From NCBI RefSeq assembly GCF_016808335.1, contig NC_053144.1, positions 68,991,400 to 69,055,399 on the forward strand: a stretch of DNA of 64,000 bases, written 5' to 3'. This document shows, piece after piece, positions 28,435-60,991 of the stretch. This DNA comes from Panicum virgatum (Eukaryota; Streptophyta; Magnoliopsida; Poales; Poaceae). The translations under genes were made by a program, and so were the position numbers. The stretch's first letter is position 1; each line of letters starts with the position of its first letter. The notes under the pieces are model-generated. The model searched no databases, was not told the DNA's origin, and saw nothing but the letters and a program-made list of their open reading frames with translations.

Positions 28435-28788
28435 TGTTATATTGTGATCCAAATTCTGATGGGAGAGTGTTGGAATTTGGGCTTGGCCCATTAAGGCCCA
28501 TGTGGTGCAAACTTTTAATCCCACATTGCTAGTAGAAGTTGAGGAGACCACGTGACTCTCCTATATATCTAACCCATAGGCTTCACCGGAGAATACCAAT
28601 CCTATTATTCCTCTTGTAAGCCGCCGCTAGGCGTTATACACAAACACCCGATATAGTGAAGTTCTTGCTGGCTGGCGCCCGTGGTTTTTACCCTTCGCAT
28701 TGGAGGGGTTTTTCACGTTAAATCTTCGTGTCTTTCTGCGGTTTGATTTTTCTATTTTTCATCATTTTGTTCGCCGTCGCTTCTAACA
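28435..28788 (+). repeat. 5' LTR of Copia element
   Basis: Begins TGTTATATTGTGATCC and ends CTTCTAACA. It contains a TATA-like ctatatatct segment near 28560. Confidence 0.95.
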
Positions 28789-28790
28789 AG

Positions 28791-28802
28791 TGGTATCAGA
28801 GC
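28791..28802 (+). promoter_or_regulatory. Primer binding site (initiator-Met tRNA type)
   Basis: TGGTATCAGAGC two bases after the 5' LTR. Confidence 0.95.
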
Positions 28803-28827
28803 CGTGGTTTCAAGTTTGGGTTTCGTG

Positions 28828-31800
28828 ATGGCGTCGATGAAGTATGATCTACCGATGTTGGACTACAAGACAAGGTTCTCGCTGTGGCAAGTCAAGATGA
28901 GAGCTATTCTGGCGCAAACCAATGATCTTGATGAGGCGCTGGAAAAATTCGGGAAGAAAAAGAAGGATGAGTGGACCGATGAGGAGAAGCGCAAGGACCG
29001 TAAGGCTCTTTCTCTTATTCAGCTTCATCTATCTAATGATATTCTACAAGAAGTGCTGCAGGAAAAGACTGCTGCAGAATTGTGGCTAAAACTGGAATCG
29101 ATCTGCATGTCGAAGGATCTTACCAGTAAATTGCATATGAAGTTGAAGCTGTACACGCTTAAGATGCAGGAGGGTGATTCGGTGATGGGTCACCTATCTG
29201 TCTTCAAGGAGATCGTTGCTGACCTAGGGTCGATGGAGGTTAAGTATGAAGATGAGGACTTAGGTCTTCTTTTATTATGCTCTTTGCCAAGTTCTTATGC
29301 AAGTTTCCGTGACACCATACTATTAAGCCGTGATGAACTAACCCTTGCGGAAGTTTGTGAGGCACTCCAGTCTGAGGAGAAGATGAAAGGCATGGTGCAG
29401 ACATATGGCTCGTCCTCTAGGGGCGACGCTTTGCATGTCAGAGGCAGATCAGAGCAAAGATCCTCAAGTGATAACAACGATCGTGGCAAGAGCAATGACG
29501 GTAGAGGCCGCTCCCAGTCCAAAGGTCACAAGAAGAAATTCTGTAAGTATTGCAAGAAGAAATCTCATATGATTGAGGATTGCTGGAAATTGCAGAATAA
29601 GGAGAAGAAGAAAAATAAATCTGATGGTAAGGCTAGTGTTACTTCTGCTGGTGAAAACTCTGAGTCAGATTGTTTGGTTGTCTTTGCTGGTTGTGTTGCT
29701 GGTCATGATGAGTGGATTCTTGATTCTGCATGTTCTTTTCATATCTGCACTAATAGAGATTGGTTCAGTTCCTATGAGTCTTTGCAGAACGGTGATTTTG
29801 TGCGCATGAGAGATGATAACCCGTGTGAGATTATTGGCATTGGCTCTGTTCAGATCAAGACCCATGATGGCATGATTCGCATACTGAAGAATGTAAGGCA
29901 CATACCAGGGATGAAAAGAAATCTGATCTCGTTGAGCACACTTGATAAAGAAGGACTCAAATACACCGGTTCAGGTGGAGTTGTGAAGGTATCTAAAGGT
30001 TCTCTTTTATGTTTGCTGGGTGATCTCAATCCTTCAAATTTATATGTTCTCAGAGGTTGTACTTTGCATGGTTCTGTTTCTGCTGCTAATGTTGCTAATG
30101 CTGAACCTAGTAAGACTGACCTTTGGCATATGCGTCTTGGACACATGAGTGAACTCGGTATGGCAGAATTGATGAAGAGAAACCTGCTGGATGGCTGCAT
30201 TCTGAGTGGCAAGAAGTTCTGTGAGCATTGTGTATTTGGTAAGCATAAGAGGGTCAAATTCAATACCTCTGTTCATACCACAAAAGGTACACTTGATTAT
30301 GTTCATGCTGATTTGTGGGGTCCTTCACGTAAGCCTTCATATGGTGGTGCTCGTTATATGCTTACCATTATTGATGATTACTCTAGAAGAGTCTGGCCTT
30401 ATTTTCTGAAAAGCAAAGATGATACTTTTGCTGCTTTTATAGAATGGAAAGTTATGATAGAAAGGCAAACTGAGAAGAAGGTCAAGGTGCTTCGAACTGA
30501 TAATGGTGGAGAGTTTTGTTCGGATGCTTTTGATGATTATTGCAGAAAAGAAGGCATTGTTAGGCATCACACCATACCATACACTCCTCAGCAGAATGGT
30601 GTGGCCGAGCGTATGAACAGGACTATCATCTCGAAGGCTCGTTGCATGCTGTCCAATGCCCATATGAACAAGCGTTTTTGGGCTGAGGCTGCTAATACAG
30701 CATGTTATTTGATCAACAGATCGCCTTCTATTCCACTCAACAAGAAGACTCCTATTGAGGTATGGTCTGGTACACCTGCAGATTATTCACACTTGAGAGT
30801 TTTTGGCTGCACTGCTTATGCTCATGTTGATAATGGAAAATTAGAGCCTAGAGCTATTAAATGTCTGTTTCTTGGTTATGGTTCGGGAGTCAAAGGATAT
30901 AAATTGTGGAATCCTGAAACTAGAAAGACTTTTATGAGCAGAAGTGATGTTTTCAATGAATCTGTGATGTTTACTGACAGTTTGTCCACAGATGATGCTT
31001 TAGTTGAGAAATTGCAGTCACAAGTTAGTGTGCAGGTGGAGCTTATGGATGACCAGAAAAATGAAGTTGTTGGTAATGATGTTTCAGATAGTGTTCCTGA
31101 TACTGTTCAGCACTCACCTCCAGTTTCACAGTCTGATTTGCAGCATGAGGAGGATGTAGATTTACCTATTGCTCTTCGCAGATCAAAGAGGAGTTGTGGA
31201 CCTCCAAACCGTTTAATTGAGGAGTGTAATCTGACTTATTATGCTTTGAGTTGTGCTGAACAGGTGGAGGATGCTAGTGAGCCAGCAACATATTCTGAAG
31301 CCATTGATTCAGTTGATAAGGAGAAGTGGATCTCAGCTATGCATGAGGAGATGCAGTCTCTTGAGAAGAATGGCACATGGGAGATTGTAAGCTTGTCTGA
31401 GAAAAAGAAGACTGTTCGCTGCAAATGGGTCTTCAAGAGAAAGGAGGGTTTGTCTTCTAGTGAGCCTCCAAGATTTAAGGCAAGGTTAGTTGCAAAAGGT
31501 TTCAGTCAGATTCCTGGTGTTGACTATAATGATGTGTTCTCTCCAGTTGTGAAGCATAGCTCAATTCGGACTTTCTTTAGTATTGTTGCTATGCATGATC
31601 TTGAGCTTGAGCAGTTAGATGTGAAGACTGCATTTTTACATGGAGAGCTTGAGGAGGAAATTTACATGGATCAGCCAGAAGGATTCATAGTGCCAAGCAA
31701 AGAGAATTATGTTTGCAAATTAAAGAAATCCTTGTATGGTTTGAAACAGTCTCCTCGTCAGTGGTATAAGAGGTTTGATTCATTTATGTTGTTACATGGT

Positions 31801-32739
31801 TTTAAAAGATCTGAATATGATAGCTGTGTTTACATTAAGATTGTTGAGGAATCACCTATATACTTGCTGTTATATGTTGATGACATGCTTATTGCTGCCA
31901 AGAGCAGAAAAGAAATCACTACAGTAAAGAAATTGTTGAGTAGTGAATTTGATATGAAGGATCTTGGTGTTGCTAAGAAAATTCTAGGTATGGAGATTAC
32001 TAGAGACAGAAAATCTGGTTTATTATTTCTTAGTCAGCATAATTACATTAACAAGGTTCTTCAGCGTTTTAATATGCATGATTCAAAGACAGTTAGTACT
32101 CCTATTGCACCTCACTTTAAATTGTCAGCTGCTCAGTGCCCTAGTTCTGAGGAGGATGTTGAATACATGTCAAAAGTCCCATATTCTAGTGCTGTTGGTT
32201 CTTTGATGTATGCCATGGTTTGCTCTCGCCCAGATTTATCATATGCTATGAGTTTGGTTAGCAGATACATGTCTAATCCTGGTAAAGAACACTGGAAGAC
32301 AGTTCAGTGGATTTTCAGGTACCTCAGAGGAACAGCAGATTCTTGTTTGAAGTTTGGGAGAACTGATCAGGGACTCATTGGTTATGTGGATTCAGATTAT
32401 GCTGCTGATTTGGATAGGCGCAGGTCACTCACAGGTTATGTGTTCACTGTTAGCAGTTGTGCTGTGAGTTGGAAGGCTACTTTGCAGCCTGTTGTTGCTA
32501 TGTCTACCACAGAAGCAGAATATATGGCTATTGCTGAAGCGTGCAAGGAGGCAGTTTGGCTGAAAGATTTGCTTACTGAGCTGTGTGGAGTTGGTTCTTG
32601 CATTGATCTATTCTGTGACAGTCAAAGTGCTATTTGCCTTACTAAAGATCAGATGTTTCATGAAAGGACAAAGCATATTGATGTCAAGTACCATTATGTT
32701 CGTGATGTTATTTCACAAGGTAAATTGAATGTATGCTAG
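28828..32739 (+). CDS. Copia gag-pol polyprotein with in-frame stop near the end
   Basis: The frame has ATG at 28828 and an in-frame TAG at 32737-32739. Gag is followed by a zinc knuckle CKYCKKKSHMIEDC (about residue 238 from this ATG), protease LDSACSFH (about 300), pre-integrase LWHMRLGHM and rve integrase DNGGEF and QQNGVAERMNRT (about 555-600), reverse transcriptase QLDVKTAFLHGELEE and LLYVDDMLI (about 935-1020), and RNase H GYVDSDYAADL and MSTTEAEYMAI (about 1190-1235). After the TAG the same frame continues 32 codons to the expected end, so one nonsense base is the only visible defect. Order protease-integrase-reverse transcriptase marks Ty1/Copia. The last 32 residues lie beyond the RNase H motifs. 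Confidence 0.95.
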   Translation: MASMKYDLPMLDYKTRFSLWQVKMRAILAQTNDLDEALEKFGKKKKDEWTDEEKRKDRKALSLIQLHLSNDILQEVLQEKTAAELWLKLESICMSKDLTSKLHMKLKLYTLKMQEGDSVMGHLSVFKEIVADLGSMEVKYEDEDLGLLLLCSLPSSYASFRDTILLSRDELTLAEVCEALQSEEKMKGMVQTYGSSSRGDALHVRGRSEQRSSSDNNDRGKSNDGRGRSQSKGHKKKFCKYCKKKSHMIEDCWKLQNKEKKKNKSDGKASVTSAGENSESDCLVVFAGCVAGHDEWILDSACSFHICTNRDWFSSYESLQNGDFVRMRDDNPCEIIGIGSVQIKTHDGMIRILKNVRHIPGMKRNLISLSTLDKEGLKYTGSGGVVKVSKGSLLCLLGDLNPSNLYVLRGCTLHGSVSAANVANAEPSKTDLWHMRLGHMSELGMAELMKRNLLDGCILSGKKFCEHCVFGKHKRVKFNTSVHTTKGTLDYVHADLWGPSRKPSYGGARYMLTIIDDYSRRVWPYFLKSKDDTFAAFIEWKVMIERQTEKKVKVLRTDNGGEFCSDAFDDYCRKEGIVRHHTIPYTPQQNGVAERMNRTIISKARCMLSNAHMNKRFWAEAANTACYLINRSPSIPLNKKTPIEVWSGTPADYSHLRVFGCTAYAHVDNGKLEPRAIKCLFLGYGSGVKGYKLWNPETRKTFMSRSDVFNESVMFTDSLSTDDALVEKLQSQVSVQVELMDDQKNEVVGNDVSDSVPDTVQHSPPVSQSDLQHEEDVDLPIALRRSKRSCGPPNRLIEECNLTYYALSCAEQVEDASEPATYSEAIDSVDKEKWISAMHEEMQSLEKNGTWEIVSLSEKKKTVRCKWVFKRKEGLSSSEPPRFKARLVAKGFSQIPGVDYNDVFSPVVKHSSIRTFFSIVAMHDLELEQLDVKTAFLHGELEEEIYMDQPEGFIVPSKENYVCKLKKSLYGLKQSPRQWYKRFDSFMLLHGFKRSEYDSCVYIKIVEESPIYLLLYVDDMLIAAKSRKEITTVKKLLSSEFDMKDLGVAKKILGMEITRDRKSGLLFLSQHNYINKVLQRFNMHDSKTVSTPIAPHFKLSAAQCPSSEEDVEYMSKVPYSSAVGSLMYAMVCSRPDLSYAMSLVSRYMSNPGKEHWKTVQWIFRYLRGTADSCLKFGRTDQGLIGYVDSDYAADLDRRRSLTGYVFTVSSCAVSWKATLQPVVAMSTTEAEYMAIAEACKEAVWLKDLLTELCGVGSCIDLFCDSQSAICLTKDQMFHERTKHIDVKYHYVRDVISQGKLNVC

Positions 32740-32932
32740 ATTAGTACTCATGATAATCCAGCTGATATGATGACTAAACCAGTTCCTGTAGCTAAGTTTG
32801 AGCTTTGCTCAAGCTTAGTTGGTTTGACAGTTTAGCCCAAGAGGCTATTTGGCGCCAGAAGTTCTGTTCTTTGTTGTGTTCAGGTGATGATTTTGATATG
32901 CTACAAGAAGGAATTTGTCTCAAGGTGGAGTA

Positions 32933-33286
32933 TGTTATATTGTGATCCAAATTCTGATGGGAGAGTGTTGGAATTTGGGCTTGGCCCATTAAGGCCCATG
33001 TGGTGCAAACTTTTAATCCCACATTGCTAGTAGAAGTTGAGGAGACCACGTGACTCTCCTATATATCTAACCCATAGGCTTCACCGGAGAATATCGATCC
33101 TATTATTCCTCTTGTAAGCCGCCGCTAGGCGTTATACACAAACACCCGATATAGTGAAGTTCTTGCTGGCTGGCGCCCGTGGTTTTTACCCTTCGCATTG
33201 GAGGGGTTTTCCACGTTAAATCTTCGTGTCTTTCTGCGGTTTGATTTTTCTATTTTTCATCGTTTTGTTCGCCGTCGCTTCTAACA
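32933..33286 (+). repeat. 3' LTR of Copia element
   Basis: Same ends and length as the 5' LTR, four transitions by eye. Confidence 0.95.
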
Positions 33287-33291
33287 AGAAC

Positions 33292-37616: not shown

Positions 37617-38701
37617 TCACTGCTAGAAAAATGCACATTCGTCCGCGGCCGTTAGTACCGGTCACGGTTTCGCCCGGTACTAACGTGCAAATTTAGTACC
37701 GGGTCAAAGAAACAGTGCCCATGGGAGCCGTTTAGTACCAGCTGGTGGCTCCAGCCGGCACTAAAGTGCGCCACAGACAGCCCCCGACAGCCTCCTGCAA
37801 CGGCTAGTGACAATTTAGTACCGGCTGGAGCCACCAGCCGGTACTAAATTGGCGCCAGGAAACTTAGTACCGGCTGGTGGCTCCAGCCGGTACTAAATGG
37901 GGAGCTTTAGTACTGGCTGTAGCCACCACCCGGTACTAATGCTCCCATTATAAATTGGGGCTTCTTCCTCCCCGAGCCGAGCCAGCGCCCATTTCACCAG
38001 AGAGCTAGCTCGAGCTCGGTTTCTTCTCTCATATTAGAGTTGCGCCGCCATTATTTGATCCATTTTTTTGTGTGATTTGGACTCATTCAAGTGTGCCAAA
38101 GGTTTGCAACTTCATCCTCTCTTCATTGATAGTCTTTATTCTTCGTTTTATGCTCTATAGTTAGAGAAATTTGTGACTTTTAGAAATAGTGAGGATGAGT
38201 ATGATTTCTTTGATTTATGCAATGATTTGAGATATATAGAACCGATGACTTGAATGTGGGAGTAGGTTTATTGGCTAGGTTGAATATGAAAAATTTATAG
38301 ACGTACTTTTCAATCATTTTCTATATATTACAAATGACCGTAGCACATTTTTTATTTTTAGATTCAGATGAGCATGTGGATAGTAGAAATTTTTAGAATG
38401 AGTGTAGACAAAACATGTGATTGTAGTAGATATAACCATAATGTGGATAGTTAAATTTTTTATAATGAACTAATGAAAGAATTATAATAGATTTTTTTAT
38501 TATGAATTGATTATTTTGACACTCTAGTGATGTATTTATTCATACTCACATTTCTCTCAATTAATTTATTCAGGTTTTTTTGATTGAGAATTAATGTGAT
38601 TTTGCATTATTCAAGTGGCATGGTTAATTAGTTTGGTATTTGTTATGTATTTAGTTGCATTATTTTGACACTCTAATGATGTATTTATTCGGGCTCATAT
38701 G

Positions 38702-39059
38702 GAAACCATCGAGAAGTTTAAAAAATATATGTTTCGGATCATGAATATGTCGTTAACCTTGATCCTGCAGTGAAAACACTGCTATTCGGGGCTAGCATCG
38801 ATATGCACGATACGGTGCGGTATATATGAGGACGCGATGAAGGAGTACGGTCTTGGTCTCAATTATGAAATCCACACCTTTTGAGCCAATTAAGAATGAA
38901 ATTATCCGGACCTTGGTCGTACTCCTTCATCTGGTCCTATTGTACCGCACTGTGTCGTGGATGTCAATAGTAGCCCCGAATGTCAGTGTTATCACTGCAG
39001 GGTCAAGGTTGACGACATAGACATGTTTCGAAACAAATATTTTTTCTTCTCGATGGTTT
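38702..39059. pseudogene. GPN-loop GTPase (GPN1-like) fragment, inverted pair, unit 1
   Basis: Both arms encode pieces of a GPN-loop GTPase. The left arm on the plus strand reads VVNLDPAVKTLLFGASID, then HDTVRY and, after a one-base shift, EDAMKEYGLG. The right arm on the minus strand reads VVNLDPAVITLTFGATID and HDTVRY. These match the segment after the first GTP-binding motif in GPN1/XAB1 (plant QQT) proteins, up to and around the GPN tripeptide. Arms are about 80% identical by eye. No ORF spans the hairpin, so it is non-coding in its present form. Confidence 0.85.
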
Positions 39060-39314
39060 TAGAGAAAGTGAGCCTGAAACAAAGCCCGAACATTGATTGT
39101 GCATCCCTTATGGCGTGGAACGACGTGTTCGCGTTGAACTGAAGAGTGTCAAAATAATTATAGTTTATAATTTATGTTTTCATTTTTATTCTAATAATTT
39201 GTTCAGATTTTTTTTAATTTTTTTCAAGTGGCATGGTTAATTAGTTTGGTATTTGTTATGCATTTAGTTGCATTATTTTGTCACTCTAATGATATATTTA
39301 TTGGGGCTCATATT

Positions 39315-39620
39315 GAAACCATCGAGAAGTTTAAAAAATATATGTTTCGGATCATGAATATGTCGTTAACCTTGATCCTTCGGTGAAAACTCTGCTATTT
39401 GGGGCTAGCATCGATATCCATGATGCGGTGCGGTATATATGAGGACGCGATGAAGGAGTACGGTTTTGGTCCCAATAATGAAATCCTTCATCGGGTCCTA
39501 TTGTACCGCACTGTGTCGTGGATGTCAATACTAGCCCCAAATGTCAGTGTCATCACCGTATGGTCAAGGTTAACGACATAGACATGTTTCGAAACAAACA
39601 TTTTTTCTTCTCGATGGTTT
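39315..39620. pseudogene. GPN-loop GTPase fragment, inverted pair, unit 2
   Basis: Same structure as unit 1; loop shortened by about 50 bp. The GPN motif is kept in EYGFGPNNEI on the plus strand. Confidence 0.85.
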
Positions 39621-39876
39621 TAGAGAAAGTGAGCCTGAAACAAAGCCACGAACATTGATTGCGCATCCCTTATGGCGTGGAACGACGTGTTCGCGTTGAA
39701 CTGAAGAGTGTCAAAATAATTATAGTTTATAATTTATGTTTTCATTTTTATTCTAATAATTTGTTCAGATTTTTTTCAATTTTTTTCAAGTGGCATGGTT
39801 AATTAGTTTGGTATTTGTTATGCATTTAGTTGCATTATTTTATCACTCTAATGATGTATTTATTGGGGCTCATATT

Positions 39877-40182
39877 GAAACCAACGAGAAGTTTAAAAAA
39901 TGTATGTTTCAGATCATGAATATGTCGTTAACCTTGATCCTTCGGTGAAAACTCTGCTATTTGGGGCTAGCATTGATATCCACGATGCAGTGCGGTATAT
40001 ATGAGGACGCGATGAAGGAGTACGGTCTTGGTCCCAATAATGAAATCCTTCATCGGATCCTATTGTACCGCACTGTGTCGTGGATGTCAATACTAGCCCC
40101 GAATGTCAGTGTCATCACCGCAGGGTCAAGGTTAACGACATAGACATGTTTCGAAACAAACATTTTTTCTTCTCGATGGTTT
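39877..40182. pseudogene. GPN-loop GTPase fragment, inverted pair, unit 3
   Basis: Same structure; EYGLGPNNEI readable on the plus strand. Confidence 0.85.
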
Positions 40183-40439
40183 TAGAGAAAGTGAGCCTGA
40201 AACAAAGCCGCAAACATTGATTGCGCATCCCTTATGGCGTGGAACGACGTGTTCGCGTTGAACTGAAGAGTGTCAAAATAATTATAGTTTATAATTTATG
40301 TTTTCATTTTTATTCTAATAATTTGTTCAGATTTTTTTCAAAATTTTTTCAAGTGGCATGGTTAATTAGTTTGGTATTTGTTATGTATTTAGTTGCATTA
40401 TTTTGTCACTCTAATGATGTATTTATTGGGGCTCATATT

Positions 40440-40745
40440 GAAACCATCGAGAAGTTTAAAAAATGTATGTTTCGGATCATGAATATGTCATTAACCTTGA
40501 TCATTCGGTGAAAACTCTGCTATTTGGGGCTAGCATCGATATCCACGATGCGGTGCGGTATATATGAGGACGCGATGAAGGAGTACAGTCTTGGTCTCAA
40601 TAATGAAATCCTTCATCGGGTCCTATTGTACCGCACTGTGTCGTGGATGTCAATACTAGCCCCGAATGTTAGTGTCATCACCGCAGGGTCAAGGTTAACG
40701 ACATAGACATGTTTCGAAACAAATTTTTTTTCTTCTCGATGGTTT
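40440..40745. pseudogene. GPN-loop GTPase fragment, inverted pair, unit 4
   Basis: Same structure; the GPN tripeptide reads GLN here (EYSLGLNNEI). Confidence 0.85.
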
Positions 40746-40900
40746 TAGAGAAAGTGAGCCTGAAACAAAGCCGCGGACATTGATTGCGCATCCCTTATGG
40801 CGTGGAACGATGTGTTCGTATTGAACTGAAGAGTGTCAAAATAATAATGGTTTACAATTTATGTTTTCATTTTAAGAAAGCTCTTCAACCCTGCAGAGCG

Positions 40901-41153
40901 TGTTGGTCTTGTTAGCGGTTGTATTCGTCGTTTGATTAAGAAAGCTTTTTATATATTCTCCCTTGGCAAAGAAAGCCGTAAATTTTGTCGTGAATTTAAT
41001 GTCGAGTTGTATGGTACTGATGATGATCGTGAGTTGATGGCTCTATATAATGCAAGACGGGAAGAGTCGGGGCTGGTGGAATATGACCGTTCCGTGTCAA
41101 AACTTCGCGACGCAGTTCACGAGGCATTGGTCAAAAGATCTCATGATGAGTAG
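40901..41153 (+). CDS. Exon-like open segment of unknown origin inside the CACTA element
   Basis: A splice-acceptor-like tcttcaaccctgcag ends at 40900 and the frame stays open to the TAG at 41151-41153. The encoded piece is charged, with FSLGKESRKFCREFNVELYG, then DDDRELMALYNARREE and a basic, amphipathic end (KLRDAVHEALVKR). I do not recognise it. It could be the 3' exon of a captured host gene or of a transposon accessory protein; it is separated from the transposase by 240 bp. Confidence 0.45.
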
Positions 41154-41391: not shown

Positions 41392-44300
41392 ATGGACCGA
41401 CAATGGATGTACGGCGACCGGTGCACCATGGCGTGGATTAATGGTCTAAAGTCTTTTCTCGATGCGGCGGAGGCCCACAAGTCATCGAAAGGTTTTATGT
41501 GTTGTTCGTGCCGCGTTTGCCAAAATAAAAAGGAATACTCTAAGAGGAGCATTCTACACGCCCACATTTATGAAAAGGGTTTCATGGATAACTATACTCT
41601 TTGGACCAAGCACGGTGAACCTGGAGTTGTGATGCAAGATGGTGAAGAAGATGATGATCATAATATTGCAGACTGGGCTCATCTGTATGAAGCGGGAGCC
41701 TTTGAAGATGAACCCATGGACGATGCTGAAGAAATGGACGAGGCTGGAGAAAATGTAGCAGAAGACCAACCACCTGATGAATTAGGCCAGGTTCTAGGGG
41801 ATTCACAAAGAGACTGTGAAACTTTAAAGGAGTCAAAGAAGTTTGAGAAAATGTTGGAGGATCACAAAGAATTATTGTATCCAGATTGCAAGCAGGGGCT
41901 TAAAAAGTTGGGTACCACACTTGAAATGCTGCACTGGAAGGCAGCTAATGGTGTCACCGATAAGGGATTTGAGGAGCTACTTGGAATCGTAAAGAACATG
42001 CTTCCAGAGGGAAATGAACTACCCTCTACAACATACGAAGCAAAGAAGGTTGTTTGCCCTCTTGGATTGGAGGTACAGAAAATTCACGCATGCCCTAACG
42101 ATTGTATTCTCTATCGAGGCGAAGAATATGAGAAACTGGATGCTTGTCCTGTCTGTGATGCAAAATGGTACAAGATCAGGCAAAATGATCCTGGTGAGGT
42201 CGACGGGGAGCCCGTCAAGAAAAAAGTTCCCGCTAAGGTGATGTGGTATTTCCCAGTAATACCACGTTTGAAGCACTTTTTTAGAAATAAATCCAATGCT
42301 AAATTGATGCGGTGGCACAAAGAAGAGCGTAAGCAAGATCAGATGCTGAGACACCCTGCGGATGGGTCCCAGTGGAGAAACGTGGATAGAGATTTCCCAG
42401 ATTTTGATAACGACCCAAGGAACATAAGGTTCAGTTTAAGTATGGACGGAATGAATCCATTCGGCGAGTGGGGCAGCAGTCACAGTACATGGCCTGTGAC
42501 CCTCTGTATGTTCAATCTTCCTTCTTGGCTATGCATGAAGCGGAAGTACATGATGATGCCGGTGCTTATCCAAGGCCCAAAACAACCGGGCAATGATATT
42601 GACGTGTACCTAAGACCGTTGGTTGATGAACTTTTGCTGCTGTGGAAGGAGGAAGGTGTACATGTTTGGGACAAGGACAAACATGAGAATTTTGACCTAC
42701 GAGCATTGCTTTTTGTTACCATCAACGATTGGCCTGCACTTAGCAATCTGTCCGGACAGTCGAATAAGGGATACCAGGCATGCACTCATTGTCTAGAAGA
42801 AACCGACAGCTTGTATCTAAAAAATTGTAGGAAGATCGTGTACATGGGTCATCGTCGATTCCTTCCCCTCAACCACCCCTTAAGAAGAAAAGGAAAACAT
42901 TTCAAAGGGGAACCAGAAACTCGTGCTAAACCTATATTCCAAAACGGGAAGCGTGTTTTCTCGATGGTGAAGGATGTACATGTCGTGTTTGGAAAGGGCC
43001 GTGGAAGCAAACAAGTTCCGAATGATGAAAACGGCCATGCCCCAATGTGGAAGAAGAAGTCCATACTATGGGAGCTCCCATATTGGGATGTCCTGGAGGA
43101 CCACAACGCAATCGATGTGATGCACTTGACGAAGAATCTTTGCGTTAACCTGCTAGGATTCATTGGTACGTATGGGCAGTCAAAAGATACACTAGAAGCA
43201 AGACGTGATTTGAAAGAAACAAAACAATGAGAAGACCTACGTCCTGAGAAGAGAGAAAATGGACAGCACTACTTACGTCCTGCTAGCTACACTCTAAGCA
43301 AAGAGGAGAAGGAAAGGATGTTTGATTGCTTGAACAGTATGAAGGTACCGTCCGGTTACTCCTCGAATATGCAGAGAAGAATTAATATGAAAGAGAAAAA
43401 GTTCACAAACCTAAAGTCTCATGATTACCACGTTTTGATGACCCAATTGCTTCCAGTCGCGTTGAGGGGTATTCTACCAAAAAATGTAAGATTAACAGTG
43501 GTGAAGCTATGTGCCTTTCTTAATGAAATTTCGCAGAAGGCAATCGATCCAAATAAGCTCACAAGGCTACAGAATGATGTGGTCCAATGTCTTGTCAGTT
43601 TTGAGATGGTCTTTCCACCTTTGTTCTTTAATATTATGACCCACCTCCTGGTTCATATTGTGAAAGAGATAAATATTTTAGGCCCTGTATTCCTACACAA
43701 TATGTTCCCTTTCGAGAGATACATGGCAGTCTTAAAGAAGTACGTTCGGAATCGTTCTCGGCTAGAAGGATGTATCGCCAAGGGCTATGGAACAGAGGAG
43801 GTCATTGAGTTTTGTGTTGATTTCATTGATGAACTTAGTCCGATTGGGGTCTCCATGTCACGCTGTGATGGGCGATTGGAAGGAAAGGGCACACTAGGTA
43901 AGAAATCTAATATGCACATCCCTGAAAGTGAAATCCGCAAAGCAAATTTCACCGTTCTACAGAATTCATCCCTCGTGGCCCCATATATGGATGAGCACAT
44001 CAATATTGTCCGATATGAAAACATAGGGAAGTCTGAGGCATGGATTACACATCATCACATATATAGTTTTGCGGTTTGGCTGAGAAGAAAACTCATAGGT
44101 GACAGCACGATTGATGTACAACTACAATGGCTTGCTAGGGGACCATCGGCCACAATCATGCAATACCAAGGATACGCGATCAATGGATATACGTTTTACA
44201 CAAGAGCCCAAGATGAAAAGAGCACGAACCAAAATAGTGGTGTGCGTATTGATGCAATAGGCCATGATGGAAATAAGGACAGCTACTTTGGTGTCATAGA

Positions 44301-44767
44301 GGAAATATGGGAGCTTGACTATGGCCCCTTGAAGATTCCTTTGTTTCGATGCCAATGGGTGAACCGAGCAGGTGGCGGTGTAACGATAGACCGGTATGGA
44401 ATGACAATAGTGGACTACAAAAAAGATTGGATATAAAGACGAACCATTCGTCCTCGCCAAGGATGTGACGCAGGTTTTCTATGTGAAGGACATGGCAAGC
44501 AAACCTAAGAAAAATCAAGGCAAGTCCGACGACGAGCCAAAACGCCACATAGTTCTTCCAGGAAAAAGAAAAATCGTTGGAGTTGAAAACATTTCGGACA
44601 AGTCAGAAGACTTTGATCAGTTTTACGACCGTCCTCCATTCTCTGTCGATGTTGACCCTAGCATCCTGTTGTCCAAAGAGGACGCTCCTTACTTACGCCT
44701 CGATCATGATCAAGGGACATTCATAAAAAGAAAGGTTGTCAACGTTCCATTAAACAATGATGTGTAA
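41392..44767 (+). pseudogene. TNP2-type CACTA transposase, broken by one stop and one frameshift
   Basis: Part 1 (41392-43230, 612 codons) starts MDRQWMYGDR, a transposase-associated domain with a CxxCrxC knuckle (residues 1-75), and contains the TNP2 core from about residue 190: FRFSLSMDGMNPFGEW-type DG motif, then DWPALSNLSGQ and DVMHLTKN. Part 2 (43318-44436) is in the same frame and adds DUF4218/DUF4216-like regions (FPFERYMAVLKKYVRNR; CQWVN, then KKD). Part 3 (44465-44767) is shifted by one base at about 44427 (GYKDEPFVLA). Parts 1 and 2 are split only by TGA at 43228-43230, consistent with loss of an Arg CGA codon. CACTA transposase binds and cuts the element ends. The copy is probably inactive but only recently so. 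Confidence 0.92.
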
Positions 44768-45645
44768 TCATTAGGTTATACTTTCATGTTCATGTAACCA
44801 AGTGATTGATGTAATATATGGTGTATGAAATAACTTATATTTTAATTTTTATGCATTTATATAATAGTTTGCACAGAAAACAAAATTGAAACAGATATAA
44901 AAAATTTAGACTCAATATGATAAATTAATTAAGTGCATACTCAATGTGATAAACATAATTAAAACAGAAAATCTATTTAATTAAGTGCATGCACATATAT
45001 GATAAAAACACCCAAAAAACAGAAAATCTATTTAATTAACTATTTAATTAACATGTATGAAATAACTGAGATTTAAATTTTTTATGCATTTGTATAATAG
45101 TTTGCACAAAAAACACAATTGAAACAGATATAAAAAAATTTGGACTCAATATGATAAATTAAGTGCATACACATTAAATATATCCAACATAGTGACCTAT
45201 AATACAGAAATATAATTTTGCATGGTGAAAAAAACATATATTTGTATTTATAATTAATTTATTATGAATAAACAATATGTAAAACACTCAAAAAGAAAAC
45301 ACTAAAGAGCCAGATGGGGCAGATTAGTACCGGTCCGTGTCAACACCTGATACTAAATGACCACAATGAAAATTTCCCGCCAGATGGGCCTCTTTAGTAC
45401 CGGGCCTTCCCACTGCCCAGTACTAAATGAGCCAGTTTAGTACCGGTCCGTGTCTGCGGCCGGTACTAAACTGGCAATCATATATATATGCCAACACTTG
45501 GATTTCGATCTCCAGTTCTTCATTCTCGTCGTCATCGTCCCGGACCGCTGCGCCGCCGCTCCTCCTCCGCGCCGTCGACGTCGCCCCGCCTCCGCGCCGC
45601 TCCTCCTCGGTGCCATGGGTCCGCCTCTGCGGAGGATGCCACTCC
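44768..45645. other. CACTA right non-coding region with subterminal repeats
   Basis: AT-rich spacer containing two near copies of a tgaaataact... block (about 44828 and 45057), then accggt-type subterminal repeats 45327-45475 and a GC-rich segment. Frames at 45423-45792 are compositional. Confidence 0.6.
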
Positions 45646-47629: not shown

Positions 47630-48415
47630 TGTAACATCCCGAAAATTACCTAAATAAATCGTGCGCTAAAATTTTGCTTCGTCGTTAAGCTCGAGACCCC
47701 TCCTTGAAACCCTAACCCCAGTTCTGCCAGATCTCCCGATTCCCCAAGGACCCGACACCCGTATCCAGCACCCTATTTCTCCTCGACCCGTGCGTCGCGT
47801 TCTCGCGCGCCCGGACGCCAAGCGTGGCCGACAGGCTCCGCGATCGGCGCCGTGATCCTGGCGCGGATCCCTCTCTCCCTCTCTCCTTTTTCCCTTTTCT
47901 TTCCCCCTCCTTTTTCCTTTTCTTTTCTTTTTTTCCATTTTCTTTTCTCCTTTCTTTCCTTTTCTTTTCCCTCTCCTTCCCTCTCCTCTCTTTCTTTCCT
48001 TCTCCTCTGCCGCGCGCCTGGCCCGCGCCCTCCCCTCGCCCCCTGCTCACCCGGCCGCGCTCTCCACCCGGGCACGCCGCCCTTGGGCCCAGCTCCGGTC
48101 GCGCAGCACGCCCGGCCCGGCCGGTCCTCCTCCCCGCGCGCCCCCTGGCCGTGCCCCACCTGCCGCCCGCGCCACCACCGCACACGCGCGCGCCCGCCTG
48201 AGCTGAGCCACGCCAAGGCGACACGGTGCCGTGTCGAGCCGAGCGCACAGCGCCGGCGACTGCGGCACAGCGCCGCCTGCGCGCGGTCACCGCTTGCCCA
48301 AGGCACCGCCACGCGGTCCGCCCATCGACGACCCCCGCACAGGGCCATCGGCGACCCGCCGTCGCGTCCCATCCCGCTCGCCGGCCCCGCTCCCACCGCC
48401 ACCGACTTGGCCGCC

Positions 48416-48423
48416 TATAAAAG
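48416..48423 (+). promoter_or_regulatory. TATA box of the gypsy LTR
   Basis: tataaaag in a GC-rich setting. The same box is in LTR 2 (58564-58571) and is absent from LTR 3, which starts 5 bp downstream of its place. Confidence 0.85.
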
Positions 48424-48580
48424 ACCCCGCAGAGCCCTCCCCGAGCTCCACCGCCACCGCCGCACGGTTTTTCCCGAGCCCCAGCGTCCCACGCCTCCTC
48501 TCTTCAGCCTGCAGCGCCGCCGCTTGCCTTGCCACCGCCGGCCACCGCGGAGCCCCCCTCCCCACTGCCCCTCGACCCGA

Positions 48581-48592
48581 ATCGAGGTAGGT
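48581..48592 (+). promoter_or_regulatory. Candidate 5' splice site in LTR leader (GAG|GTAGGT)
   Basis: The sequence atcgag|gtaggt, about 165 bp after the TATA box, is a strong match to the plant 5' splice consensus. It is present in all three LTRs. It could donate to the acceptors before exon A or before the ORF starts. Confidence 0.45.
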
Positions 48593-49329
48593 TTGGGCAC
48601 CTCTGAGGCCCAATGGTGCTCCTCCCCCTCTTGACCGCCGCCGCCCCTCTGGATTACCGATCCAGGGCCGCCACCACCCGCCGCCGCCGGCCGCCATGGC
48701 CGAGCCACCCCAGGCCGCCACGGGCTGAGCCGCGGCCGGGAATCAACCCCGCACGCCTCCCTGGCCCTTTTCCCCCTACTCCGGGCTGCCGCCGTGCCCC
48801 CAGGCCGCGGGCCCGTGAGCTCCGACGAGCGCCGGCCTCCCTCCCCTGTTTCCCAGCGCGGGGGAGGAAGAGGACTGGCATTTTTGCCAAGAACCCCCTC
48901 CACTTTCCTCTATTCATTAAAGAAACCCCACCCCTTTAGGCCCTTTTTCATTTAAAACCCCTTCTTTTATTATATTCCCAAAATAAACCCCACTATATAA
49001 ACATAATTACAAATAAAACCCTGACTCTTTTAGATTAACCCAAGAAACTTTTAAAATTTAAACAAAGCCCCTGCTTACTTAATCCTAATTACAACTAGGT
49101 CCCTAGACCCCTGTTTAGGGCCTAAACGCTTCCCTGACCTATCCTTTTATGTGCCTAACGACCCCGGCTTAACCTAAAATTTTACCCCGCCTCTCCTAAC
49201 TCAGCTTTGGCCATACCATTCAGAAACCATCCAAAAATAATACTCTATGCTCTATATTCCATGTGTTCCCGTTTCGAGCTCGACGACAAATCTTTGTTTT
49301 GATTGTGTGTTTGTTTGTGTGCGCTGTAG

Positions 49330-49446
49330 ACCACGGAGTGACCGAAGGAGAGCCCGTTGTCGAGCAGTTCTGTGAGCAGGAGAACGAGGACCCGTTCCGC
49401 GACCCCGAGCCCGAAGGACAGGACTTCCCCGAGGGCTTTGAAGACG
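49330..49446 (+). other. Exon-like coding segment A in LTR 1
   Basis: Preceded by tgtgcgctgtag and followed by GCAAGTT, a GC-type 5' splice site. It encodes a very acidic segment starting DHGVTEGEPVVEQFCEQEN and containing PFRDPEPEGQDFPEGFED. The frame is phase 1 at both ends. It is repeated identically in LTR 2 (59479-59595) and LTR 3 (62073-62189). Confidence 0.5.
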
Positions 49447-50534
49447 GCAAGTTCAATCCCATCCTTTGATGCATGTTTCTGTCCTAGTTTTTATAAACAC
49501 CACCCAATGGCCTGTTTTATAAATTGCATATGTTTTGCTTGCATGAAAACACGGTTGGATAGCCACCCCTTGACTTGTGATGACCATTCCTTGACCACCT
49601 AGATTAATGTCTGATTTTGCTTGGACGTTAATCGATATTAGAACGCTCAGGACTTTACTCATAATATGATTTATTTGATAAAGAAAATGTGTGCGTGTGG
49701 GAAGGGATAAAATGTGGATTTCGAAAGATGAGTATGGACGAGATGAACGGCATTTCTGTGTGATTTGCCGATTGGTGTGCTTGTGCCTGTGTGGCAGAGC
49801 AAGGAGGGAGATATCCATCTTGTCGTGTCTAAGGACCGAGTTGGTGTGTCATCTCACCTAACTCCATTATCGTGCAAACCACTCGACCGTTGAATGGGCA
49901 ACGGCGTAGCATAAATCCCACTAGTTGGTGTGGTAGCCATCAGGAGAGCTGAGAGCAACGGGTGACTAAGGAAAAGGGATAAGCCCCGAGTGACTTATGC
50001 CCGGTTATACCTAAGTGAACGGTCAATGACCCCTTGGTGCGTCCCGTGATGGCTAGTCAGGCTTAGCTATGGTGGGTAATGGCTATGTTGGGATCTACAC
50101 CGACACGACGGTGTTCGAGTTGTGGTATCCTACTTGTGGGTAAAGTTGCACACCTCTGCAGAGTTAAGAATCTATTCGAATAGTCCGTGCCCACGGTATT
50201 GGGCGAGTTATGGTGTGGTCACATAACTAGTGTTTCTCTGGGATGGGCTGGTGTGAGTTGTTTTGGAATTGGTCCCGGCAGTTGTGCCGTGTGCTACGTC
50301 GGACGGGGAGTCCGGTAGCAGTTTTAAAACCTGAACTCTGTGTTAATGCCAAAAACTGATTTCTAAATGGTTTTCTATAAAGTAAACCCCTGCATAAAGT
50401 ATCGCTTTTCGGCAAATTAAACCGTAACCTTATCCTTGATTTACCTATGCATATTATTCTGTTATAACCCCCTCCGTGGGTGTGGTTGGACTTGCTGAGT
50501 ACGTTTGTACTCACCCCACTCTTACTTTTTACAG

Positions 50535-50572
50535 AAGAAGACCCGGACTTCGTACCAGACGACGCCGAGTAG
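50535..50572 (+). other. Exon-like coding segment B in LTR 1
   Basis: Preceded by the acceptor-like ttactttttacag. If joined to segment A, the split codon is completed to Glu and the frame reads EEDPDFVPDDAE and then TAG. Copies: 60685-60722 and 63278-63315. Confidence 0.5.
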
Positions 50573-50842
50573 GGTTATCGTTCTACACCCAACCTTACCT
50601 GTGGAACCGGCCCTGTTGAGATGCCTCCGCTGTCGCAGTACTCTGAGCCCGTAGTAGACCCTATGTGGTTCGCGGTCTGGTGTTATGTCGTAGCCTGGTT
50701 AATTATTATTATCATCTGTATCGAGTGTCCGCCAAGGTTTGTAAGGTTTTGAACCATCTGATGTAATAAATGTGGCATCAGCCTCCTGGGACTGGTGCTT
50801 TGTATCACATATAAGTCTTCTCTTATGAGGGGACGCTTCAGG

Positions 50843-50854
50843 TGGTATCAGAGC
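50843..50854 (+). promoter_or_regulatory. Primer binding site (initiator-Met tRNA type)
   Basis: TGGTATCAGAGC two bases after LTR 1; a second copy follows LTR 2 (60994-61005). Confidence 0.95.
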
Positions 50855-50981
50855 CGTAGGTTGGCCGTAGGACGTGACCCTAGGAGCGAAACCCGTTTTC
50901 AGGACCCTTCGCCTTAGGACTCTTCTATCCTTAATCCTTTTCTCACACAAATACTTACCTTGGGTTCTTGCCCTGTTCCAG

Positions 50982-51854
50982 ATGGCTGACAATGGATGGA
51001 TCGGCGGAATCTGTTTCGCAGAGCCCGGCCTTCCTAAGTTGTTGATACTCAGCCTGGAACGCATTGGAGTTGAGGATCCGCCAGAGTTTCTTTACCGGGA
51101 GTATGACTCCAAGGGCACTCTTCGGTGTGACCTGATGATCTTCATAGCAAGAAGCACCCACTACCCTGATGTGGACCCTTGGTTCATCTCCACCACTGGA
51201 TTCCGTTTCCCGGATACCTATCGGAAAGCCGCCCGCAAAGCCCTACGACGTCTGCGTGTGATCTACAGGCATCACCTCCAGCGGACTCCTATGGGATTTT
51301 TCCCGCCGACTGAAGGAAGAGGACGCACATGGATTGCCAGGATGAGAGGACTTGGAAGAGAAGAAGAAGACCTAGAAGACACGGTCTCTCACCTATCCAT
51401 CTATCTCACCGGCCTGGATGAGCTCTATCGCGAGCAAGCAGCACAACTGAAACAGCAGGTCCACAGAGCAGAAAAGGCAACCCAGGAGATGGAGGAACAA
51501 CGGTCGAGGACTTTCCATGCCGAGTATTCCCTAGCCGCCCTCCAAGTCCAAATGGATGAAAAAGAGGAAGAACTGGAAGAACAGCGAGCAAGAGCCACAC
51601 GCGCCGAGGACTCGCTAGCCGCTCTCCAAGCTCGGATGCGGAGGTACGAGGCTCGCTGGGGAATAGGAGGATGGATAGAGGAAGACGAAGAAGAAGAGCC
51701 CATGGAAACCCATTGGGATGTTGGAACTCAAACTGAAGAAGAAGAACCTGAAGAGACCCACTGGGATAAAGGAACTCAGACCGAGGATGACATGATGGAT
51801 CAGTATCTCCCACTGAAGAAACACCCTCTTAGGATCGAGGAAGAGTCTCCATGA
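50982..51854 (+). CDS. Extra ORF before gag, ORF0a, 290 aa
   Basis: Starts MADNGWIGGICFAEPG at ATG 50982, directly after ttcttgccctgttccag. The amino half shares with ORF0b the pattern LLILSLERIGV, REYDSKGTLRC, YPDVDPW and RKALRRLRVIYRHHL, then TPMGFFPP. Next comes a long Glu/Gln-rich coiled-coil-like region (about residues 150-225), then an acidic tail with two near repeats, ETHWDVGTQTE and ETHWDKGTQTE. No catalytic motif. An extra ORF upstream of gag (orf0) has been described in rice RIRE3/RIRE8-type gypsy elements; its role is unknown. It may be expressed from a spliced transcript. Confidence 0.8.
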   Translation: MADNGWIGGICFAEPGLPKLLILSLERIGVEDPPEFLYREYDSKGTLRCDLMIFIARSTHYPDVDPWFISTTGFRFPDTYRKAARKALRRLRVIYRHHLQRTPMGFFPPTEGRGRTWIARMRGLGREEEDLEDTVSHLSIYLTGLDELYREQAAQLKQQVHRAEKATQEMEEQRSRTFHAEYSLAALQVQMDEKEEELEEQRARATRAEDSLAALQARMRRYEARWGIGGWIEEDEEEEPMETHWDVGTQTEEEEPEETHWDKGTQTEDDMMDQYLPLKKHPLRIEEESP

Positions 51855-52003
51855 TAGGAGTTGTCTCCAAGCTAAAACCTTTGCTCTAATAATAATCATG
51901 TACCCATGGAGTTGTACCCCCATGACGCCATAAATAAAAATCATCTACCCCTTTGTGTACCTCAAATAATTGTGCAAGTTTTTCACCATATCTTTGTTTT
52001 CAG

Positions 52004-52891
52004 ATGGCTGAGGAAGGATGGACCCAGGGCGACTGCCAAGCTGCACCTGGCTTCCCCAGCCTCTTGATCAACGCCCTGGAGAGCCTTGGCGTCGCAGAAC
52101 ACCCAAGGTACTACAGCAGAGAGTACGAGCATCATGGCACTCTCCGCTGCAGGGTGATCCTAGTCATCGCCAGAAGCGACCGTTACCCCGACATCCTGTC
52201 ATGGCGGGTGACTGCTACAGGGTTTAGGCACCAGGACACCTATCCCCTAGCCGTCAGGAAAGCACTTCGTTATCTGTGCCGGATTTTCGAAGGACACCTC
52301 ACCCCCACACCAATGAGGTTCTTCCCACCAGCCATCAGGACTCCAGTTTGGGAAGCTCGAATGAGGAGCCTGGAACGACGCCGCCATGAAGAAGTCCTCC
52401 TGTATCAAGTAGCTACCTACCTAGCCTCCTTGGATCAGCTCTTTGACGAGCAAGCCAACTTGCTGAGGGAACAGACCCATCGAGCCGAGCAAGCAGAGCT
52501 CGCACTAAGACTGCAACAGATCCGAGCAGTCCAAGCTGAGGCAAGAGCCGCAGCAGCGGTCAGCAGTGAAGCAGTTGCTCAGGAGAGCCTCAGGCAAGCC
52601 CGAGACCGGCGTATGCAAGAATGGGCTAGTAGTGGAACCCCAGTCCCGGCAATAGGAGAAGACCATGTTCTGCTCGGGACGCCCGTCTTTGGATGGGGAC
52701 CACTCGTTGGAAACCCACTAGCCCCACCCGAGAATCCTGGAAGGTCTACGGCCGCCGCCGCAAGAGAAGCCGCAACGCAACCCCGGGAAAACGGAGGTCT
52801 AGAGGATGGCGTACCGGGACCACTCTTTTCCCCGGAGGTCGTGGGTACCTTTCCGAGGGAGGAACCCACTCAAGCCGATGAGTCAGCCTAA
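52004..52891 (+). CDS. Extra ORF before gag, ORF0b, 295 aa
   Basis: Starts MAEEGWTQGDCQAAPGFP at ATG 52004, directly after ccatatctttgttttcag. It is paralogous to ORF0a: same order of LLINALESLGV, REYEHHGTLRC, YPDILSW, RKALRYL and TPMRFFPP, then a coiled-coil-like region rich in Arg/Gln/Ala (about 150-215). The tail is different and rich in Gly, Pro and Glu. Two ORFs of this family within one element, each intact, is unusual to my knowledge. Confidence 0.8.
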   Translation: MAEEGWTQGDCQAAPGFPSLLINALESLGVAEHPRYYSREYEHHGTLRCRVILVIARSDRYPDILSWRVTATGFRHQDTYPLAVRKALRYLCRIFEGHLTPTPMRFFPPAIRTPVWEARMRSLERRRHEEVLLYQVATYLASLDQLFDEQANLLREQTHRAEQAELALRLQQIRAVQAEARAAAAVSSEAVAQESLRQARDRRMQEWASSGTPVPAIGEDHVLLGTPVFGWGPLVGNPLAPPENPGRSTAAAAREAATQPRENGGLEDGVPGPLFSPEVVGTFPREEPTQADESA

Positions 52892-53167
52892 AGTGTTAGC
52901 GATCATCAAGGGATGAAGCCGTGTGGTCCGAAGAAGATCAGTGCCCCTTTTCTTTTGTAGTTGTACCCGGTCGTGTAGTACGCGTTTGACCTTGCCCCTT
53001 GCTGTACCACCCTTGCTGTAATAAAGCTGCTTGTGCTTGTTGTTTGTGATGATTGCTTGTTGATTGTGTGCTTGCCGGCAGTAAATAGATACTGCCTTTT
53101 CAAAAAAAATACGACTTAATCGACTTAAACATCACCTAATCTTAGTCCCAATCCACTCGTTCTGCAG

Positions 53168-57500: not shown

Positions 57501-57736
57501 GATGTCTGAGAGTACCCGAGGTAGAGCATGTGCCAGCAGAAATGATAGATCTACAGCCAGACCTGCGATATCAGGAAGTACCGGTCAAGATTCTAGACAC
57601 CATCACCAGGAGAACCAGAAACTCCGAAGTACGAATTTGCAGAGTTCAGTGGAGCAGACACGGAGTAAAAAGAAGCTACGTGGGAACGCGAAGATGCCCT
57701 GAAGAAGGAATTTCCCCACCTGTTTAGGAACCAGTC
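54557..57736 (+). pseudogene. Gypsy pol remnant: protease tail, reverse transcriptase, RNase H, integrase, chromodomain
   Basis: The parts appear in order but in alternating frames. ILGMDWLSKHNG belongs to the protease/linker (54688). [20 protein letters not shown] (about 55070) and [10 protein letters not shown] (about 55420) are reverse transcriptase. [17 protein letters not shown] and [19 protein letters not shown] are RNase H (55840-55990). The HHCC-type zinc region and DFVVGLP, VSDRGTQFTS and TDGQTERVN (56460-57000) are integrase. The last stretch, up to WSRH (about 57650), resembles the chromodomain of Tekay elements. At least ten apparent single-base frame breaks and a TGA at 56574-56576 interrupt it. 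The copy cannot make active pol as written. Confidence 0.92.
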
Positions 57737-57756
57737 GAATCTCGAGGACGAGATTC

Positions 57757-57775
57757 ATTTTAAGTGGGGTAGGTT
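57757..57775 (+). promoter_or_regulatory. Purine-rich tract before LTR 2
   Basis: ttttaagtggggtaggtt precedes LTR 2, the plus-strand priming place for retrotransposons. Confidence 0.7.
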
Positions 57776-60700: not shown

Positions 60701-60991
60701 CGTACCAGACGACGCCGAGTAGGGTTATCGTTCTACACCCAACCTTACCTGTGGAACCGGCCCTGTTGAGATGCCTCCGCTGTCGCAGTACTCTGAGCCC
60801 GTAGTAGACCCTATGTGGTTCGCGGGTCTGGTGTTATGTCGTAGCCTGGTTAATTATTATTATCATCTGTATCGAGTGTCCGCCAAGGTTTGTAAGGTTT
60901 TGAACCATCTGATGTAATAAATGTGGCATCAGCCTCCTGGGACTGGTGCTTTGTATCACATATAAGTCTTCTCTTATGAGGGGACGCTTCA
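57776..60991 (+). repeat. LTR 2, 3216 bp
   Basis: Full-length copy of LTR 1 with TATA box at 58564-58571 and the same exon-like segments A and B. It is followed directly by a primer site and interior start sequence, so it behaves as a 5' LTR of an adjoining truncated copy. Confidence 0.95.

What the first reader, a model, noticed from the sequence alone, without database searches (positions are those of the whole stretch)
38702..40745. CACTA element carries a captured GPN-loop GTPase fragment amplified into four hairpins
Seen: four tandem units (starts 38702, 39315, 39877, 40440), each an inverted repeat whose two arms encode VVNLDPAV, FGA, HDTVRY or HDAVRY and EYGLGPN-like residues in opposite orientation. 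Known: this is the conserved stretch of GPN1/XAB1 (plant QQT-type) GTPases, which assist RNA polymerase II assembly and are essential in plants. Inferred: a transposon captured a host gene piece, inverted it and multiplied it; transcription would give long double-stranded RNA, like the Mu-killer locus, and could feed small RNAs against the element or against the host GPN1 gene. Arm differences are largely at third codon positions, which hints that the arms come from two related coding sequences and not from one recent inversion.
Basis: partly seen in the sequence, partly recalled or inferred. Interest (0 to 1): 0.92.

Follow-up and report, generated by a model that had tools for sequence, protein, structure and literature searches.

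The report
Transposon hairpins aimed at host GPN1
A jumping gene in what is very likely the switchgrass genome carries four RNA-hairpin units built from a piece of the plant's own GPN1 gene; the hairpins are predicted to make small RNAs against GPN1, and the plant's four GPN1 genes carry many silent changes in exactly that piece, likely made to escape them.

Summary
Confirmed and extended. Window 38607-40873 holds four tandem units, each an inverted repeat of a GPN1 fragment that folds far better than shuffles (z -21 to -24). They lie between the left terminus (37618) and the tnp2 transposase of a CACTA element. The host genome is held (1,129,937,113 bases, the size published for switchgrass AP13). 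It has four GPN1 genes, at least 40 places with the unit 1 hairpin at 97% or more, and many older relics. Twelve of 17 relics fetched share one exact junction inside GPN1 exon 2, so one capture and one inversion made the family; two source genes are not supported. Unit 1 keeps 30 nt of perfect antisense match to one GPN1 gene. Unexpectedly, the four GPN1 genes are hypervariable in just the captured stretch: third codon positions vary at 25 of 45 sites inside and 39 of 280 outside (p 5e-9), while the protein is almost unchanged. Best reading: a long conflict in which hairpin siRNAs hit GPN1 and the genes escape by silent change, a plant counterpart of Drosophila TART-A/nxf2. Small RNAs could not be tested here; gene conversion is the main rival.

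The parts
37618..37631 (+). left terminus of the CACTA element (CACTGCTAGAAAAA)
   Evidence: Pattern search; 15 of 20 fetched copies have this terminus or a one-letter relative of it by pattern.
37811..37939 (.). subterminal repeats, left side
   Evidence: Tandem repeats of a TAGTACCGGCTGG-type unit; similar motifs at 45301-45476 on the right (read).
38607..40873 (+). array of four tandem units (lead, hairpin, tail)
   Evidence: Direct repeats and self-alignment.
38701..39062 (+). hairpin of unit 1 (GPN1 arms about 38746-38879 and 38881-39019)
   Evidence: Fold z -21.6; arms mapped to GPN1 exon 2.
39314..39621 (+). hairpin of unit 2
   Evidence: Fold z -24.0.
39876..40183 (+). hairpin of unit 3
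   Evidence: Fold z -21.7.
40439..40746 (+). hairpin of unit 4
   Evidence: Fold z -20.8.
38991..39020 (-). 30 nt identical to GPN1 gene G9a; antisense to its message on a + transcript
   Evidence: 29 of these 30 nt are intact in 14 of 21 copies.
40123..40143 (-). 21 nt identical to GPN1 genes G9b and G18 (unit 3)
40686..40706 (-). 21 nt identical to GPN1 genes G9b and G18 (unit 4)
41392..44436 (+). transposase reading frame: Transpos_assoc, Transposase_21 (tnp2), DUF4218, start of DUF4216; broken by an in-frame stop at 43228-43230

Best explanation
A CACTA transposon lineage carries a 137-nt piece of exon 2 of the host's GPN1 gene, inverted once into a hairpin that now lies at 40 or more near-identical places (four tandem units here), and transcripts through it would be cut into small RNAs that likely attack GPN1 messages, from which the four host GPN1 genes have likely escaped by silent changes in exactly that piece. 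Shown: the GPN1 piece lies within exon 2, older copies share one inversion junction, the unit is amplified inside CACTA copies, the predicted hairpins are very stable, one unit has a 30-nt exact antisense match, and the host genes have a sharp peak of silent divergence over the captured stretch. Inferred: transcription from the left end through the array toward the transposase, dicing, action on GPN1, and selection as the cause of the silent changes.
For: Family: PF03029 in all eight arms. Carrier: left-end sequence upstream in 20 of 20 fetched copies and transposase sequence downstream in 19 of 20; one complete element with both termini and TAG on both sides. Copies: 40 of 40 scored candidates (of 515) at 97% or better. 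One origin: 12 of 17 older loci share the junction 130/137 with no base between the arms; consensus arms read as nearly intact GPN1; tree. Match to host: 30 nt to G9a, 21 nt to G9b and G18. Footprint: third positions vary at 25 of 45 in the stretch and 39 of 280 outside, p 5e-9; all seven sites with three or more alleles are in the stretch; the scan picks 164-275 where the stretch is 165-302, 0 of 300 permutations. Excess also at non-CpG sites and at 4-fold sites, and above intron 2 for three gene pairs (31-36% against 7-11%, p 6e-6 to 5e-5). In 11 of 14 single-gene changes both arm consensuses keep the older letter.
Against: No small-RNA or expression data could be consulted. Old hairpins show no conserved guide-length window and no excess of wobble over A-C mismatches (128 against 109 in 13 loci; in the window 19 against 7 columns). 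Exact runs of this length are near what chance gives after many comparisons. In non-CpG third positions, letters found in the genes are commoner in arms than other letters (mean 7.1 against 2.2, p 0.0013), which fits exchange between genes and hairpins, or uncertain ancestry, better than pure escape. In 3 of 14 single-gene changes one arm consensus has the new letter. The same stretch in grasses without the hairpin could not be read.
Confidence: 0.48

Rival explanations
1. The hairpin is a passive passenger, and the peak of silent divergence comes from ectopic gene conversion: short patches of the many GPN1-like hairpin copies were copied into the GPN1 genes and only silent letters survived purifying selection.
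For: Many GPN1-like copies exist (84 non-gene matches of 104). Gene letters are commoner in arms than other possible letters. G18 shares a run of letters with one arm of L055 more than 486 or 487 of 500 shuffles, uncorrected for four genes.
Against: Over the four genes together linked sharing with the 38 sampled arms is not above shuffles (145 and 73 of 500 as high). Arms change at all codon positions and often lose the frame, yet the genes took almost only silent letters. Only 17 older loci were sampled, so an unseen donor is not excluded.
Confidence: 0.27
2. The stretch of GPN1 exon 2 is a mutation hot spot, for example through DNA methylation guided by hairpin small RNAs, without selection.
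For: All 10 CpG third positions in the stretch vary (13 of 28 outside).
Against: Non-CpG third positions are also in excess (15 of 35 against 26 of 252). The transition share is alike inside (22 transition and 11 transversion letters) and outside (27 and 12 sites, my hand count from the list).
Confidence: 0.12
3. The hairpin serves to silence the transposon itself, as Mu-killer does, and GPN1 is only the raw material.
For: Young copies carry mostly C to T and G to A changes (58 of 96), as methylated DNA does (recalled).
Against: The stem is a GPN1 exon piece with short non-GPN flanks and not transposase sequence, so it is not expected to act on transposase RNA. It does not explain the footprint in the genes.
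Confidence: 0.08

Closest known systems
TART-A and nxf2 in Drosophila melanogaster (PMC7785250; outline and two Results sections read)
   Same: A transposon holds a piece of a host gene, and the matching region of the host gene evolves fast and away from the element.
   Different: There the element is a telomeric retrotransposon, the small RNAs are piRNAs that were seen, and the target works in silencing. Here it is a DNA transposon with long hairpins, the target is a GTPase linked to RNA polymerase II assembly (recalled), the change is silent, and small RNAs are not shown.
miR820 in rice CACTA elements, targeting OsDRM2 (PMC3459959; outline and two Results sections read)
   Same: A CACTA element carries a fold-back with similarity to a host gene and has multiplied it; target and small RNA co-evolve.
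   Different: miR820 is a seen miRNA whose homology spans exon and intron. Here the stem is 130-137 nt of coding exon per arm, in up to four tandem units, and no small RNA is shown.
Teosinte Pollen Drive hairpin Tpd1 against Tdr1 (PMC11390486; abstract and passages)
   Same: A non-coding hairpin whose siRNAs hit a host gene in a grass.
   Different: One locus that acts as a drive; not shown there as a transposon-borne captured exon.
MIR genes born by inverted duplication of target genes (recalled; no call)
   Same: A target-gene piece duplicated head to head gives a fold-back.
   Different: Here the fold-back rides in a transposon and has reached many loci.
Pack-TYPE transposons (PMC8903248; abstract and outline only)
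   Same: DNA transposons that capture coding DNA.
   Different: Pack-TYPE elements are non-autonomous; this family keeps a transposase frame, and the captured piece is inverted.

Membership tests
CACTA DNA transposon | terminal inverted repeats beginning CACT(A/G) | tested here: met
   Left terminus at 37618 in the window; both termini in copy L009. The right terminus of the window copy was not found up to 64000.
CACTA DNA transposon | 3-bp target-site duplication | tested here: inconclusive
   TAG on both sides in 1 of 20 fetched copies; in the other 19 my patterns found no right end.
CACTA DNA transposon | tnp2-type transposase | tested here: met
   Transposase_21 E 1.5e-87 and Transpos_assoc E 4.5e-18; the frame has an in-frame stop.
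GPN1 (GPN-loop GTPase 1) fragment | PF03029 match and GPN motif | tested here: met
   All eight arms match, three of eight above the cut-off; GPN reads in the left arms of units 2 and 3 and not in those of units 1 and 4.
MIRNA gene such as miR820 | a conserved guide-length window | tested here: not met
   No 21-nt window of the old right arms is better conserved than chance (p 0.91); left arms p 0.08.
MIRNA gene such as miR820 | a precise small RNA | not testable with these tools
   No read data.
TART-A/nxf2-type conflict | fast evolution of the host gene confined to the captured stretch | tested here: met
TART-A/nxf2-type conflict | small RNAs antisense to the host gene and lower host expression | not testable with these tools
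   No read data.
Mu-killer-type locus | hairpin made of the transposon's own transposase gene (recalled) | tested here: not met
   Arms are GPN1 exon 2.
Pack-TYPE element | non-autonomous, without transposase | tested here: not met
   Transposase sequence in the window and in 19 of 20 fetched copies.

The most novel reading that the evidence does not exclude
A CACTA family has waged a multi-million-year RNA war on a housekeeping gene: its GPN1 hairpins force the plant's GPN1 copies to saturate their silent sites over precisely the captured stretch while the protein stays fixed. Tandem units have specialised on different GPN1 copies (unit 1 on G9a; units 3 and 4 on G9b and G18). This would be a plant TART/nxf2-type conflict and a case of silent sites under strong positive selection.
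Probability: 0.38. Interest if true: 0.93.

Novelty: new variant of a known kind. Interest (0 to 1): 0.81.

Why it matters
If right, the silent codon positions of a conserved gene record attack by small RNAs, and scans for short peaks of silent divergence that coincide with transposon-borne hairpins would find more such conflicts. Even under the conversion reading, transposon copies are rewriting the silent sites of a likely essential gene. Both readings can be tested with switchgrass small-RNA, RNA-seq and population data.

Tried and rejected
Two source genes for the two arms: rejected by the shared junction, the near-identical consensus arms and the tree. Before the host genome answered, I argued the same from two replacements shared by both arms at sites invariant in 58 of 58 proteins that fitted my pattern, out of 197 protein records on file, the window peptide included; the older loci showed that these replacements arose later, in this lineage.

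Selection on RNA pairing: wobble against mismatch gave no clear signal in old copies. Arms of one locus match each other slightly better than shuffled pairs do (mismatch 0.223 against 0.244, p 0.0001, 13 loci), but subfamilies, CpG sites and uncertain ancestral letters confound this, so I do not use it.

Right arms closer to GPN1 than left arms, by best-gene identity, in 14 of 17 loci with both arms: not used, because divergence from each side's own consensus is not consistently smaller on the right.

Other collections: an exact-pattern scan of viral contigs found nothing; Rfam found nothing at its cut-offs. A protein search confined to the arm found nothing; I take that as a limit of short queries, not as absence. 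The frame after the array, 40875-41152, matches no Pfam family.

Print: none of the listings I saw named this case. Several listings were capped (for example 20 of 48, 12 of 92, 12 of 54), and only the held open library is searched.

Corrected on re-check: I had counted four arms above the Pfam cut-off; it is three of eight. I had placed the start of an LTR retrotransposon near 45650; the repeat that I can show begins near 47629. I had said 20 of 20 copies have transposase downstream; it is 19 of 20. The odds were trimmed slightly for the evidence.

Full report
WHAT IS THERE. The window holds four tandem units at 38607-40873. Each unit has a lead, a hairpin and a tail. The hairpins are 38701-39062, 39314-39621, 39876-40183 and 40439-40746. 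Folded as RNA they reach -216.2, -182.4, -185.1 and -177.3 kcal/mol with z-scores of -21.6, -24.0, -21.7 and -20.8; none of 100 shuffles does as well in any of the four. All eight arms match Pfam ATP_bind_1, the GPN family, at E 2.2e-7 to 0.011; three of eight pass the curated cut-off. The one arm tested against the PDB finds only GPN-loop GTPase 1.

CARRIER. The array lies downstream of a CACTA-type left terminus at 37618 with subterminal repeats, and upstream of a tnp2 transposase frame at 41392-44436. That frame has one in-frame stop at 43228-43230. The right terminus was not found between the transposase and the end of the window; a Ty3-type LTR element begins near 47629. In the host genome, 20 of 20 fetched copies have left-end sequence upstream of the unit and 19 of 20 have transposase sequence downstream within the stretch fetched. 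One of them (L009, 5177 bp) has both termini and TAG on both sides; in the other 19 my patterns found no right end.

HOST. The window is G000:C9:68991400-69055399 of a genome of 1,129,937,113 bases in 627 contigs. The switchgrass AP13 paper gives a haploid size of 1,129.9 Mb and a release of 626 contigs (PMC7886653, passages).

COPY NUMBER. With the unit 1 hairpin as query, 40 candidates of 515 were scored and 40 places match at 97% or better, the window included. With the whole unit, 40 of 736 candidates were scored and the list was cut. Both are lower bounds. Of the 20 fetched copies, 10 have one unit, 6 have two and 4 have one and part of a second. The window has four, and one place on C3 has three. 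Twenty-one copies of the unit 1 hairpin (the window and 20) average 4.6 substitutions from their consensus over 364 columns, and 58 of 96 changes are C to T or G to A. I read this as a young burst of DNA that is now methylated (inference).

ONE CAPTURE, ONE INVERSION. A Urochloa GPN1 protein finds four GPN1 genes: G9a and G9b on C9, G13 on C13 and G18 on C18. It also finds 84 further matches, of 104 in all (103 of 900 candidates scored), many of them head-to-head pairs. I could fetch 17 of these older loci. In 12 of 17 the left arm ends at position 130 and the right arm starts at position 137 of the same exon 2 segment, and the two abut with no base between. Three more are near this (L055, L059, L060), and two are rearranged (L063, L065). 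No match ran into the 60 nt of intron that I included on either side of exon 2. Consensus left and right arms, from 15 arms each, differ at 9 of 130 sites. They read YVVNLEPAVMTLPFGASIDIRDTVRYKDVMKEYGLGPNEEILT and YVVNLDPAVMTLPFGANIDIRDTVRYKDVMKEYGLGPNGAILT, almost GPN1 itself. In a tree of 42 rows the 19 left arms form one side of a branch (100/97), and the 19 right arms and the genes form the other; the bootstrap had not fully settled. So a single captured piece was inverted once and then spread.

POTENTIAL TO HIT THE HOST GENE. On a + strand transcript, the direction of the transposase, the right arms are antisense to GPN1. Unit 1 shares 30 nt exactly with G9a (38991-39020), and units 3 and 4 share 21 nt with G9b and with G18. 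Twenty-nine of the 30 nt are intact in 14 of 21 copies. Runs this long are unusual for one comparison (p 0.01) but not after the many comparisons made.

THE FOOTPRINT IN THE HOST GENES. I joined 975 nt of coding sequence from five exon blocks of the four genes. In the stretch that matches the hairpin 28 of 137 sites vary; elsewhere 52 of 838 do (Fisher p 6e-7). At third codon positions the figures are 25 of 45 and 39 of 280 (p 5e-9), and all seven sites with three or more alleles lie in the stretch. A scan of third positions that was not given the hairpin limits chose 164-275, and none of 300 permutations reached its score; the captured stretch is 165-302. The excess holds for CpG and non-CpG sites and for 4-fold and other sites. 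Per gene pair, third positions differ at 31-44% in the stretch and 5.7-8.9% outside. Intron 2 differs at 7.1-10.9% for the three pairs without G9a; pairs with G9a give 28-30%, where the alignment is poor. Intron 1 gives 12-18% over 99 columns. So, outside the stretch, silent divergence is near that of intron 2, and the stretch has several times more. The protein in the stretch is unchanged but for two residues of G18. In 11 of 14 single-gene changes both arm consensuses keep the older letter; in the other three, one arm consensus has the new letter. The progenitors of the two subgenomes are dated to about 6.7 million years in PMC7886653 (passage).

MECHANISM. I read this as conflict. Transcription of the element would make hairpin RNA, and dicing would give siRNAs. 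Those from the right arms would act on GPN1 messages, and GPN1 copies with silent mismatches would be favoured. Near the loop, where left arms no longer match the gene, the genes show no peak, which fits (inference). The main rival is gene conversion from hairpin copies into the genes. Against it, linked sharing between genes and the 38 sampled arms is not above shuffles overall (145 and 73 of 500 as high; G18 alone 13 and 14 of 500), and arms change at all codon positions while the genes took almost only silent letters. For it, gene letters at non-CpG third positions are commoner in arms than other letters (mean 7.1 against 2.2, p 0.0013), although several of them may simply be ancestral. A hot spot through methylation is disfavoured by the similar share of transitions inside and outside and by the non-CpG excess.

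WHAT DOES NOT FIT. Old hairpins show no conserved guide window and no excess of wobble pairs over A-C mismatches (128 against 109), though the window array has 19 columns against 7. If the hairpin is selected, it is so in the active lineage and not copy by copy, and it works as a source of many siRNAs and not as a miRNA. No read data could be consulted, and no other grass genome was available for the control that matters most.

COMPARISON. The nearest known cases are TART-A/nxf2 in Drosophila, where the captured stretch of the host gene also evolves away from the element, and miR820 in rice CACTA elements. Here a housekeeping gene is involved, the capture is a long coding hairpin in tandem, and the footprint is silent. 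The listings of my paper searches named nothing on this case. I call it a new variant of a known kind.

Noticed in passing
G000:C12:68314938-68431787 and G000:C16:7305760-7316131: Hairpin-bearing copies recur at near-regular spacing (about 10.67 kb on C12, about 4.97 kb on C16), as if whole elements had been duplicated in tandem.
   Followed up: no
window 28435-33288: Copia-type LTR retrotransposon with 356-nt terminal repeats 98.9% identical and one long gag-pol frame.
   Followed up: partly
window 47630-63583: Ty3-type LTR element with repeats 99.6% identical and a third, partial repeat copy at 61168-63583.
   Followed up: partly
window 40875-41152: An open frame of 92 residues between the array and the transposase, with a coding look but no Pfam match.
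   Followed up: partly
window 14315-14674 (- strand): First exon of an adenylate kinase gene by Pfam.
   Followed up: no
L054 1-320: One older hairpin has its outer flank replaced by sequence ending TTTCTTGTAGT, which looks like the end of a different CACTA family.
   Followed up: no
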